This document shows positions 8,482 through 11,536 of a stretch of 64,000 bases of DNA, piece by piece. The position numbers and the translations under genes are program-made. The notes below the pieces were generated by a model that worked only from the letters and a program-made list of their open reading frames with translations, was not told the DNA's origin and did not search any database. Each line of letters starts with the position of its first letter. Position 1 is the stretch's first letter. Source of the stretch: Skermanella mucosa (GTDB taxonomy: Bacteria; Pseudomonadota; Alphaproteobacteria; Azospirillales; Azospirillaceae); the NCBI RefSeq assembly GCF_016765655.2, contig NZ_CP086106.1, positions 1,176,501 through 1,240,500 of the forward strand, written 5' to 3'.

Positions 8482-9633
8482 ATGAGTAAGACGATCATAT
8501 CGCAGTCCCCCCTTCGGCCATCCTTGGGGAATATAAAATTTAATATTATTTCAATACAGTATTTAAGGGCGTTCGCCGCTCTCCTGGTGGTGTTTCACCA
8601 TGCGCGCTACCAGATCGCCGACTTCGAGGTGTTCTACAAGGGGGGCGTCTGGCCGTTCGGGCAGGCGGGCGTGGACATCTTCTTCGTCATCAGCGGCTTC
8701 ATCATGTGGATGACGACTTCGGCGCGGCCGACCACGCCGGCCGACTTCATCCGGAACCGCGTCGTCCGGATCGTCCCGATGTACTGGCTCGTGACCCTGG
8801 CCGTGGCGGTCGCGGCCCTGCTGCTGCCGAATCTGTTCCGGGCGGTCGAGCTGACGCCCGAGCACGTGATCAAGTCGCTGTTCTTCGTCCCCCATTTCTA
8901 TCCCGGCGCGCCGACCCGGATCTGGCCCCTGCTGATCCCGGGCTGGACCCTCAATTACGAGATGTTCTTCTACCTGGTCTTCGCGGCGGCGCTGTTCCTG
9001 CCGCGCGCCCTGATCATCCCGGCGATCACCGCCCTGTTCGCGGCGATCTCGGTGATCGGCCTGGTGGTCCCCTTCGAGGATCCGATCCTGATCTTCTTCG
9101 CGGATTCCATCATCCTGGAATTCGTGGCCGGAATGCTGCTCGGCCGGCTCTACCTGCAAGGGCGGCTGGCGTTGCCGGCCTGGGCCGCCGTGCCGGCGAT
9201 CGCCGCCGGGCTGGTCTGGATGGTCGCCCTGACCCCCTGGGAGGCTCCCGAGACGCGCCTGCTGGTCTGGGGCGTGCCGGCCGTCCTGACGGTCGCCGGC
9301 TGCCTGTCGCTGGAGGCCAGGGGGGCGGTCGGCAGGAACGGGCTGCTGACCCTGCTGGGCGATGCCTCCTACTCGATCTACCTGACCCATATCCTGACGC
9401 TCGGCGTGATCAGGACGGTCTGGAGCCGGCTGGGGCTGGTCGAGCAGGACCCCGCCGCCGCCTGGATCTTCATGGCCTCGGCGATCGCGATATCGTCGGC
9501 GGCGGGCGTCGCGGCGTATATCCTGCTCGAGGCGCCGATCCAGAGGCTGGCGCGCCGCCGGCGGCCCGGGTCCGGGCGCCGGTCCGCCGTCGCGGCCGGC
9601 GCCCGGCTCCCTGCGGTCAAATCCAGCGGATGA
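8482..9633 (+). CDS. Membrane acyltransferase (acyltransferase 3 / OafA-ExoZ family)
   Basis: 383 residues from ATG 8482; ATG 8446 in the same frame is possible and neither has a clear ribosome site. The protein has about 10 membrane helices. It opens with ISIQYLRAFAALLVVFHHARY, the family's hallmark first helix with the conserved His, followed by GVDIFFVISGFIMW and the Asn-Tyr-Glu motif in the sixth region (GWTLNYEMFFYLVF). These proteins transfer acetyl or succinyl groups to surface sugars such as exopolysaccharide or O-antigen. The C-terminus is Arg-rich and cytoplasmic. The first coding 70 bases are strikingly AT-rich against the rest of the window. Its end overlaps the convergent kinase gene by 17 bases. 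Confidence 0.88.
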   Translation: MSKTIISQSPLRPSLGNIKFNIISIQYLRAFAALLVVFHHARYQIADFEVFYKGGVWPFGQAGVDIFFVISGFIMWMTTSARPTTPADFIRNRVVRIVPMYWLVTLAVAVAALLLPNLFRAVELTPEHVIKSLFFVPHFYPGAPTRIWPLLIPGWTLNYEMFFYLVFAAALFLPRALIIPAITALFAAISVIGLVVPFEDPILIFFADSIILEFVAGMLLGRLYLQGRLALPAWAAVPAIAAGLVWMVALTPWEAPETRLLVWGVPAVLTVAGCLSLEARGAVGRNGLLTLLGDASYSIYLTHILTLGVIRTVWSRLGLVEQDPAAAWIFMASAIAISSAAGVAAYILLEAPIQRLARRRRPGSGRRSAVAAGARLPAVKSSG

Positions 9634-11536
9634 ACAGCCAGGCGGTGCCGGGCTGCCGGCCGGAACGCATCTCGATCAGCACCTTCATGGGCTGGTCGAA
9701 GGTGAAGATATAGCTGAAGATGATGTTCAGGCTTCCGGTCTCGACGCCGTCCCGGAACCGTCCGTGGAACTCCGGCGTGAAAGTGCAGGGGGCGACGTCG
9801 CGGAAGAAATCCGAGCCGATCACCAGGTCGGCCTTGCGCCCGGTGAAATTCTCCTCCGCGGCGTTGTAGCTGAGGACCTTTCCCGTCCGGTCGAGCTGGA
9901 CGATGCCGATCGGCAGGTCGGCCAGGGCGTCCCGGCCGGTCTCCTCCACCAGCTCGAACACGCCCTGGTCGCCGATCCTGAAGAACTCCTTGAGGCCGCC
10001 GATGGTCGGGGCCGGCGGCCTGCCGTCGGGCGTGCGGACCCGCCAGGACGGCAGCGTCATGAAGGCGGTGGTGCCGACGCCCGGGCTGGTGTTCAGATGG
10101 AGCATGCCGCCGTGCAGCTCGATCAGCGCCTTGGCGACCGGCAGCCCCAGCCCGGTGCCTTCCGTATTGGCCTGGAGATGCGAGCCGACCCGGCCGAACG
10201 GGGCGAGGGCGACCGGCAGGTCGCGGGCGGAGATCCCGATGCCGGTATCCGAGGTCGTGAAGCAGATCTGGCCGTCCGCCAGGATGTGGGCCGCCAGGGT
10301 GACCTCGCCGCCGGCCTCGGTGAACTTGACCGCGTTGCCCACCAGGTTCAGCAGCACCTGCCGCAGCAGGCGCCGGTCCGCGATCACCGCCACGTCGTCC
10401 GGCGCGGGCGCCACGGTCAGCTTCAGCCGGGCCTTCGACGCCCGTTCCCTCAGCAGCCGCTCGACGTCCCCCAGCAGCCGCTTCGCGGACACGGTCTCCT
10501 CGTTCAGCGTGACCTGGCCGGCCTCGATCTTCGCCATGTCCAGCAGGTCGTTGATGATGTCGAGCAGGTGCCGGCCGGCGAACAGGACGTCGCTGGCATA
10601 TTCCACATAGGTCGGGTTGCCGAGGGGGCCGTGCATCTCCTCGGCCATCATCTCCGAGAACCCGATGATCGCGTTCAGCGGCGTGCGCAGCTCGTGGCTC
10701 ATGTTGGCGAGCAGCGACGTCTTGGCCTGGTTGGCCCGCTCGGCCTGTTCCTTGGCCGCCATCAGTTCCAGGGCCGCGCGCTTGCTCGCGGTGACGTCCT
10801 GCACCGTCCCGAACAGGGCCAGGGGGTGCCCGTCGCCGCTGCTGTGGACGACCCGCTCCTCGTGCAGGTGGCGGATCTCGCCGTCGGGCAGCACGATGCG
10901 GTAGTCGAACGATCCGGACCGCGCCGACGGCGCCGCGAGGTCGCGGTCCAGGGGATGGACCAGGTCGAGGAACTCGACGGGACCCGGCGGCCCCGCGGCG
11001 GGATCGCGGTCATGGATCCCGTACAGGATGTCCGACCAGACCGTGCTTCCCGTCGCCAGCTCCGTCCGCCACCAGCCGAGCCGCGCCATGCGCTGGGCGG
11101 CTTCCAGCGCCTGCTCCAGCCGGCGGTGTCCGGTCAGGTCGGTGGAGGTCCCGACCAGTCGGACGACCCGCCCGTCGTGGAACAGCGGGTTCAGCACGGT
11201 CCGGGTCCAGAAGACCCTGTCTCCCAGCCGGATCTCCTCCTCGTAGCCGATCGGGCCGCGGGTGGAGACGCAGTCCCGGTAATGGCCGGTGATTCGGTAG
11301 GCGAGGCAGGGCGCCAGCACCTCCTCGATCAGACGGCCGGCGCAGTCGTCGTTGGTCAGGCCGAAGGAGCGCTCGTACCAGTCGTTCAGCATCGCGATCC
11401 GGAACCCGCCGCCGCTCCCGCCCCCATCCGTCACGTCGATGACGAAGATCGGGCAGGCGATCTGGTTGACGAGTTCGCGCAAGGTCGCCCCGGCGGAGGT
11501 CTTGAGGATGTCGGGCTGGTCGAGCAGGGTCGTCAT
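9617..11536 (-). CDS. PAS-PAS histidine kinase with C-terminal photoactive yellow protein (PYP) domain
   Basis: 639 residues, no membrane helix, so cytoplasmic. Order: PAS/PAC about 22-140; second PAS (PAS_3-like) 150-255; HisKA with LANMSHELRTPLNAI, phospho-acceptor His281; ATPase domain with N box Asn401, DTGIG 430-434 and TEGTGLGL 458-465; linker; PYP about 515-639. The PYP part carries YNAAEENFTGR and DVAPCT. Tyr557, Glu561, Thr565, Arg567 and Cys584 correspond to PYP Y42, E46, T50, R52 and C69 at a constant offset of 515, so the pocket for thioester-bound p-coumarate looks intact; one residue is lost in the M100-loop region. In Rhodospirillum centenum Ppr the PYP is N-terminal to a phytochrome-kinase, so a C-terminal placement is unusual. 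The start overlaps the upstream ligase stop (ATGA). A blue-light kinase is strongly suggested; its partner is unknown. Confidence 0.92.
   Translation of the reverse strand: MTTLLDQPDILKTSAGATLRELVNQIACPIFVIDVTDGGGSGGGFRIAMLNDWYERSFGLTNDDCAGRLIEEVLAPCLAYRITGHYRDCVSTRGPIGYEEEIRLGDRVFWTRTVLNPLFHDGRVVRLVGTSTDLTGHRRLEQALEAAQRMARLGWWRTELATGSTVWSDILYGIHDRDPAAGPPGPVEFLDLVHPLDRDLAAPSARSGSFDYRIVLPDGEIRHLHEERVVHSSGDGHPLALFGTVQDVTASKRAALELMAAKEQAERANQAKTSLLANMSHELRTPLNAIIGFSEMMAEEMHGPLGNPTYVEYASDVLFAGRHLLDIINDLLDMAKIEAGQVTLNEETVSAKRLLGDVERLLRERASKARLKLTVAPAPDDVAVIADRRLLRQVLLNLVGNAVKFTEAGGEVTLAAHILADGQICFTTSDTGIGISARDLPVALAPFGRVGSHLQANTEGTGLGLPVAKALIELHGGMLHLNTSPGVGTTAFMTLPSWRVRTPDGRPPAPTIGGLKEFFRIGDQGVFELVEETGRDALADLPIGIVQLDRTGKVLSYNAAEENFTGRKADLVIGSDFFRDVAPCTFTPEFHGRFRDGVETGSLNIIFSYIFTFDQPMKVLIEMRSGRQPGTAWLFIRWI

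What the first reader, a model, noticed from the sequence alone, without database searches (positions are those of the whole stretch)
9617..11536. Photoactive yellow protein fused to the C-terminus of a PAS-PAS histidine kinase
Seen: the last 125 residues align with Halorhodospira PYP with a constant offset of 515 through the pocket (Tyr557, Glu561, Thr565, Arg567, Cys584 = Y42, E46, T50, R52, C69), behind a complete kinase core (His281, Asn401, DTGIG, TEGTGLGL). Known: PYP binds p-coumarate by thioester at C69 and is a blue-light receptor; the known fusion Ppr of Rhodospirillum centenum has PYP at the N-terminus before a phytochrome-kinase. Inference: here light sensing lies downstream of the ATPase domain, so the signal must act backwards on the catalytic domain. 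This would be an unusual architecture for a light-controlled kinase.
Basis: partly seen in the sequence, partly recalled or inferred. Interest (0 to 1): 0.95.

Follow-up and report, generated by a model that had tools for sequence, protein, structure and literature searches.

The report
Blue-light sensor behind a bacterial kinase
A bacterium of the genus Skermanella encodes a signalling kinase with a blue-light-sensing yellow-protein domain attached at its tail end; the arrangement is real and found across the genus genomes examined, but the same layout was already reported in 2025, so its value is as a test case for how this light sensor passes on its signal.

Summary
Confirmed: one frame (9617-11536, minus, 639 aa) encodes PAS-PAS-HisKA-HATPase_c followed by a PYP domain with Tyr42, Glu46, Thr50, Arg52 and Cys69 in register. 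It is not a sequencing error: three other Skermanella genomes carry the complete fusion at 95, 93 and 59% identity, and a fifth shows its end at a contig edge. In the most distant pair PYP core (73%) and ATPase (76%) are about equally conserved, the front PAS domains less (41%, 46%). A 4-coumarate:CoA ligase-like gene overlaps the kinase start by 4 bp.

Best reading: a p-coumarate-loaded, blue-light-controlled histidine kinase whose PYP N-terminal cap, the part that unfolds in lit Halorhodospira PYP, joins PYP to the ATPase domain. Light control is untested.

[quoted passage not shown] 5A); PYP is C-terminal in 35% of its 153 multidomain proteins. So this is a new member of a known kind. Added here: presence in 5 of 5 held genus genomes, loss of the Met100 loop residue, T/A/S variation at spectral position 50, and locus history.

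The parts
9617..11536 (-). [quoted passage not shown]
   Evidence: orthologues
11123..11404 (-). PAS 1 (residues 45-138, PAS_4)
10805..11038 (-). PAS 2 (residues 167-244, PAS_3), followed in the model by one long helix (249-300) into the dimerisation domain
10517..10723 (-). HisKA domain (272-340); phospho-acceptor His281 within SHELRTP
10046..10378 (-). HATPase_c domain (387-497): Asn401, DTGIG, TEGTGLGL
9995..10045 (-). Proline-containing linker (498-514); no regular structure predicted at 502-514; residues 498-516 identical (19 of 19) to the two nearest orthologues
9620..9994 (-). PYP domain (515-639): N-terminal cap helices 515-523 and 526-538 (low model confidence), then PAS core from about 541; Cys584 codon at 9785-9787
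11533..12822 (-). 4-coumarate:CoA ligase-like gene (TIGR02372, 296 bits; cut-off 334.7), 429 aa from a GTG; its TGA overlaps the kinase ATG by 4 bp

Best explanation
A blue-light-regulated histidine kinase, probably soluble. The ligase from the same operon activates p-coumarate to its CoA thioester, which loads onto Cys584 of the C-terminal PYP domain. Blue light (predicted maximum roughly 440-447 nm because residue 50 is Thr) isomerises the chromophore and releases the PYP N-terminal cap. Because that cap is the segment that ties PYP to the ATPase domain through a short linker, its release changes how PYP docks on, or how freely, the ATPase/dimerisation core moves, and so shifts the kinase/phosphatase balance. 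The two front PAS domains give a second, conventional input through the signalling helix. The phosphate goes to a response regulator encoded elsewhere. Shown: domain order, pocket residues, kinase motifs, gene overlap, conservation. Inferred: solubility, chromophore loading, photocycle, light control, the cap-release step, the partner.
For: Pocket and kinase motifs complete. Fusion in 5 of 5 held Skermanella genomes, one seen only as its C-terminal end. In the distant pair (window vs G081) PYP core identity 72.7%, dN/dS 0.20, against HATPase 75.7%, 0.19; PAS1 40.8%, 0.80; PAS2 46.4%, 0.55. Ligase gene overlaps the kinase by 4 bp, and the window genome has no canonical single-domain pyp (2 hits at E<=1e-10: this one and a divergent one). 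Model: long helix from PAS2 into the dimerisation domain, but no continuous helix between ATPase domain and PYP. [quoted passage not shown] the 6 PYPs with Thr50 absorb at 445 +/- 2.7 nm (PMC12826048 section 5).
Against: No light, binding or phosphorylation data. Both NCBIfam naming cut-offs (PYP, ligase) are missed. In the three close pairs PAS2 is as constrained as PYP core (dN/dS 0.15, 0.22, 0.22 against 0.30, 0.27, 0.19), so only PAS1 (0.77, 0.46, 0.32) is consistently looser. The cap is less conserved than the PYP core in the distant pair (54%, dN/dS 0.86 over 24 residues), against a finely fitted cap contact. The cap region has low model confidence (mean pLDDT 51-66 over 511-540) and whole-model pTM is 0.45, so domain placement is not determined. 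The genome's only PF00221 lyase matches histidine ammonia-lyase, so the source of p-coumarate is unknown. The ligase could serve the second PYP-like protein instead.
Confidence: 0.6

Rival explanations
1. The PYP is a photoreceptor but not an input to its own kinase: it signals in trans (for example to a chemoreceptor or another kinase), and fusion only fixes its amount and place.
For: Most PYPs act as single domains (83% of homologues, PMC12826048). In S. aerolata one strand holds, in order, the end of the kinase-PYP, a single-domain pyp, an MCP signalling-domain protein, the ligase and a TAL-like lyase. No structured connection to the ATPase domain is predicted.
Against: In the distant pair PYP core and ATPase domain are about equally conserved, and the linker is identical in the window and its two nearest orthologues. 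The genes flanking the window's pair are a porin and an acyltransferase, not such a partner.
Confidence: 0.2
2. The chromophore domain reports p-coumarate supply as well as light: the kinase is gated by loading of a plant phenolic that the strain cannot make.
For: The window genome has one PF00221 lyase, best PDB match histidine ammonia-lyase at 585 bits, whereas S. aerolata has an extra TAL-like lyase beside the ligase. The ligase gene overlaps the kinase gene. PMC12826048 section 8 notes that some bacteria may take up p-coumarate.
Against: TAL activity from unrelated enzymes is not excluded; the single lyases of the other three genomes were counted but not typed; apo and dark holo states may signal alike.
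Confidence: 0.1
3. The PYP is a relic or a light-independent docking or stability domain.
For: Loss of the Met100-loop residue, F28I, and scores below the TIGR02373 cut-off.
Against: Tyr42, Glu46 and Cys69 kept in 4 of 4 complete sequences; dN/dS 0.19-0.30 in the PYP core over four pairs.
Confidence: 0.08
4. Assembly or sequencing error joins two genes.
For: None found.
Against: Same junction in other genomes at 95, 93 and 59% identity.
Confidence: 0.01

Closest known systems
[quoted passage not shown] 2025 (PMC12826048, Fig. 5A)
   Same: The same domain order with PYP C-terminal; possibly the same proteins or their orthologues.
   Different: The species behind this class are not named in the parts I read and the supplements could not be read; Skermanella has 0 occurrences in the main text. 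No mechanism or experiment for this class in the sections read.
Ppr of Rhodospirillum centenum / Rhodocista centenaria (PYP-phytochrome-histidine kinase)
   Same: PYP plus histidine kinase in one chain; a long protein with N-terminal PYP and a kinase core occurs in the same bacterial family (G077).
   Different: PYP is N-terminal and a bilin-binding module lies between; the PYP domains of long N-terminal-PYP proteins and of these kinases fall in separate groups in the tree.
MCP-PYP fusions (12 in PMC12826048)
   Same: PYP at the C-terminus behind a signalling module; a ligase-like frame follows in 3 of 3 such loci (L056, L068, L082).
   Different: Output module is a chemoreceptor, not a kinase; their PYP domains do not group with these.
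DivJ/PleC-like HisKA kinases of alphaproteobacteria (grouping recalled)
   Same: Kinase core's best NCBIfam hit is DivJ (213.5 bits, far below its cut-off of 1000); 31 places in the own genome match the core at E<=1e-40, the query itself included.
   Different: Of the 11 next-best places examined, 9 end within 40 residues of the ATPase domain; one has a receiver-like extension (by eye) and one a long further extension.

Membership tests
PYP domain family (Cys69 definition, PMC9664959) | Cys69, with Tyr42 and Glu46, in a PYP-type PAS domain | tested here: met
   PMC9664959 passages
NCBIfam TIGR02373 photo_yellow equivalog | score at or above 143.05 bits | tested here: not met
   114.9 bits, 118.7. 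The N-terminal PYPs of long proteins in G054 (135.8) and G001 (123.1) also miss it. I do not file it under this equivalog, only as a PYP-family domain by the Cys69 definition.
PYP domain family | covalent p-coumarate and a photocycle | not testable with these tools
   needs protein
HisKA-type sensor histidine kinase | acceptor His, N-, G1- and G2-boxes; HisKA and HATPase_c over gathering score | tested here: met
Ppr-type PYP-phytochrome kinase | N-terminal PYP and a phytochrome module | tested here: not met
   no GAF or PHY among the 7 Pfam families found; PYP is C-terminal
[quoted passage not shown]
4-coumarate:CoA ligase TIGR02372 equivalog | score at or above 334.7 bits | tested here: not met
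   296 bits; 0 of 5 genus genomes pass, including the one with a ligase beside a TAL-like lyase (315.7). Called ligase-like.

The most novel reading that the evidence does not exclude
The PYP N-terminal cap is the mechanical link: light unfolds it and so frees or lengthens the tether (by up to about 25 residues) between PYP and the ATPase domain, making this kinase a natural fusion of PYP to its own signalling partner. Loss of the Met100-loop residue would make the lit state long-lived, and lack of an evident tyrosine ammonia-lyase would make the kinase read outside p-coumarate and blue light together.
Probability: 0.2. Interest if true: 0.7.

Novelty: new member of a known kind. Interest (0 to 1): 0.4.

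Why it matters
How PYP passes its signal on is an open question: a 2024 review concludes that the partner and how the unfurling N-terminal domain is recognised are still unknown (PMC11003764, passages), and the 2025 survey leaves open why PYP sits N- or C-terminally (PMC12826048 section 6). Here PYP and a likely output are one chain, joined at the cap that unfolds, with natural orthologues differing at the spectral-tuning position 50. That makes the question testable by ordinary kinase assays.

Tried and rejected
Sequencing error or separate pyp gene: rejected by orthologues. Recent in-place fusion of the neighbouring single-domain pyp: not supported, since the fused PYPs form one group (SH-aLRT 98) apart from the single-domain Skermanella PYPs, which sit with those of other members of the family (quick tree, 99 rows, 129 columns, 40 of 96 inner branches open, no bootstrap; 29 of 127 extracted domains, redundant or divergent or short, were left out beforehand and Halorhodospira PYP added). 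Response regulator next door: none among the neighbours scanned (ligase, acyltransferase, porin, chemoreceptor, glutathione transferase); not every window ORF was scanned. Promoter scan: 0 sites, 0.2 expected; 5 terminator-like sites, 1.6 expected; uninformative. Plasmid search: 4 records matched, architecture not examined, features named pyp or none. Fold search of the whole model: sensor-kinase, NifL and phytochrome chains fill the 50 rows shown; nothing on the junction. Met100 mutants: no held paper has M100A, so the slow-recovery idea rests on recall plus a remark in PMC9664959 that Met100 was proposed to catalyse re-isomerisation. The reading that C-terminal PYP is a gene-order fossil (HisKA/HATPase genes in 17 pyp operons, preferentially upstream, PMC12826048 section 8; and a second PYP in this genome whose ATG overlaps the TGA of an upstream hybrid kinase) is attractive, but those two kinases are not close, so it is circumstantial.

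Full report
Observation. The finding holds in every detail checked. The frame 9617-11536 on the minus strand gives 639 residues without a stop. Pfam finds PAS_4, PAS_3, HisKA and HATPase_c in that order, and a PAS match over the last domain; NCBIfam identifies that last domain as photoactive yellow protein, E 2.3e-33, though at 114.9 bits it misses the model's naming cut-off of 143.05. The PDB searches return Halorhodospira PYP structures. Tyr557, Glu561, Thr565, Arg567 and Cys584 lie at PYP positions 42, 46, 50, 52 and 69; the kinase has His281, Asn401, DTGIG and TEGTGLGL; 15 of 17 residues that PMC12826048 lists as more than 70% conserved in 984 PYPs are kept. One residue is missing in the loop that carries Met100 in Halorhodospira PYP; the four complete fused sequences and the S. 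aerolata end share this.

It is a real fused gene. The genome belongs to a genus with five held genomes. Two contigs of that genus equal in length contigs named Skermanella stibiiresistens SB22 and Skermanella aerolata KACC 11604, so the genus is Skermanella. Complete orthologues occur in G079, G080 and G081 (95, 93, 59% identity to the window), and in G078 the contig ends inside the PYP domain with a matching C-terminus. With the window that is 5 of 5 genomes, one of them partial.

Distribution. With TIGR02373, 82 genomes of the family were searched. At E<=1e-10, 19 of 82 have a match; among those matches the kinase-then-PYP frame was seen only in this genus, and the long frames of G001, G054, G067 and G077 have PYP near the N-terminus. 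The many weaker matches (55 of 82 genomes at E<=0.001), mostly in other long PAS proteins, were not examined. In 385 genomes of the class 9 have a match at E<=1e-10; the two long frames outside the genus are chemoreceptor-PYP. In 398 genomes of the phylum 5 do, the window's included; three are frames of 900-910 aa with N-terminal PYP. The named-genome scan used two short motif patterns and kept the best 80 of 101 relatives. In those 80 loci, one is a complete C-terminal kinase-PYP (L048) and one its PYP end (L049), both Skermanella; other frames with 300 or more residues before a terminal PYP are three MCP-PYP (L056, L068, L082), two phosphatase-PYP (L117, L125) and L087, which has no other Pfam domain. 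The scan is narrow and kinases were sought there with one query, so absence elsewhere is not shown; PMC12826048 may list others.

Selection. Window against G081: PAS1 40.8% identity, PAS2 46.4%, HisKA 76.8%, HATPase 75.7%, linker 68.4%, PYP cap 54.2%, PYP core 72.7%; dN/dS 0.80, 0.55, 0.12, 0.19, 0.30, 0.86 and 0.20. About half of synonymous sites differ in this pair, so the ratios are rough, and the short segments (19-24 codons) are noisy. In the three close pairs PYP core gives 0.30, 0.27 and 0.19, HATPase 0.26, 0.12 and 0.25, PAS2 0.15, 0.22 and 0.22, PAS1 0.77, 0.46 and 0.32. So PYP core is under purifying selection much like the enzyme; PAS1 is looser throughout, PAS2 only in the distant pair. 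The weak cap conservation is a point against a finely fitted cap contact.

Chromophore supply. The gene directly upstream is 4-coumarate:CoA ligase-like (296 bits with TIGR02372; cut-off 334.7; 0 of 5 genus genomes pass). Its TGA overlaps the kinase ATG by four bases. In S. stibiiresistens (L034) the ligase follows a single-domain pyp on the strand opposite to the kinase-PYP; in S. aerolata (L040) one strand reads kinase-PYP end, pyp, MCP signalling protein, ligase, followed by a lyase whose best PDB match is 2o6y at 383 bits. PDB calls that chain a putative histidine ammonia-lyase; I recall it as Rhodobacter tyrosine ammonia-lyase. In the window genome, G079 and G080 no canonical single-domain pyp was found and the ligase adjoins the fusion. 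The window genome's one PF00221 lyase matches histidine ammonia-lyase at 585 bits, so I found no tyrosine ammonia-lyase there; the single lyases of G079, G080 and G081 were not typed. A second, divergent PYP-like protein at G000:C1:38999-39358 also keeps Tyr42, Glu46 and Cys69 by eye, so the ligase may have two clients.

Structure and mechanism. An AlphaFold2 model from 26 sequences has mean pLDDT 76.8 and pTM 0.45: domain folds are mostly good, their placement is not determined. PAS2 runs by one long helix (249-300) into the dimerisation domain, the usual input route. Behind the ATPase domain no such helix is predicted: 502-514 has no regular structure, then come two cap helices (515-523, 526-538) of low confidence (mean pLDDT 51-66 over 511-540) and the PYP core (block means 81-96 from 541). 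The plausible routes are docking of PYP on the ATPase/dimerisation core, or a change of tether when the cap unfolds. HELRT in HisKA fits a kinase/phosphatase switch (motif recalled). Residue 50 is Thr in the window, Ala in G079 and G080, Ser in G081; PMC12826048 section 5 gives 445 +/- 2.7 nm for six Thr50 PYPs, a blue shift for Ser50 and a tendency to red for Ala50, with exceptions.

Origin. The fused PYPs form one group with SH-aLRT 98, separate from single-domain and long N-terminal PYPs (quick tree, few columns). With presence in all five genomes this suggests that the fusion predates their split, though transfer within the genus is not excluded, and that it was not made recently from the neighbouring Skermanella pyp.

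Known or new. PMC12826048 (December 2025; [quoted passage not shown] That is this architecture. In the listings of my literature searches I saw no experimental study of such a protein; the library holds only open-licence papers. PMC9664959, PMC2993699 and PMC6798134 were seen as passages only. Verdict: real, known as a class, useful as a test case.

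Noticed in passing
L117:3576-5288 (+) and L125:3543-5312 (+), Myxococcales MAGs: Single frames with a SAK/DSP-type phosphatase (PF22784/PF22785, 74-81 bits, with HCRGGQGRTG) followed by a C-terminal PYP-like domain that has Tyr42, Glu46 and Cys69 by eye; L117 also scores with an ABC-type ATPase before them. Phosphatase-PYP is not among the partner domains named in the sections of PMC12826048 that I read.
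   Followed up: partly
G000:C1:38999-39358 (L041:5994-6377, minus): Second, divergent PYP-like protein (about 127 aa) whose ATG overlaps by 4 bp the stop of a hybrid kinase frame with Cache, PAS, HisKA, HATPase and receiver matches; relatives in all five genus genomes. In G081 the neighbouring kinase frame lies on the opposite strand; in G078 none was detected.
   Followed up: partly
L040/L049/L155 (S. aerolata): Gene cluster on one strand: kinase-PYP end, pyp, a protein with only an MCP signalling domain, ligase, TAL-like lyase.
   Followed up: partly
L128:4779-6770 and L129:7490-9259: MCP-PYP fusions in two small (1.3 and 1.6 Mb) genomes of one genus in the same class as the window.
   Followed up: no
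window 2745-5045 (+): Chemoreceptor with HBM, HAMP and MCP signalling domains about 4.5 kb from the kinase; no link shown.
   Followed up: no
G000:C1:1172991-1174373, 2 kb before the window start: Histidine ammonia-lyase-like gene, the genome's only PF00221 match at E<=1e-20.
   Followed up: yes
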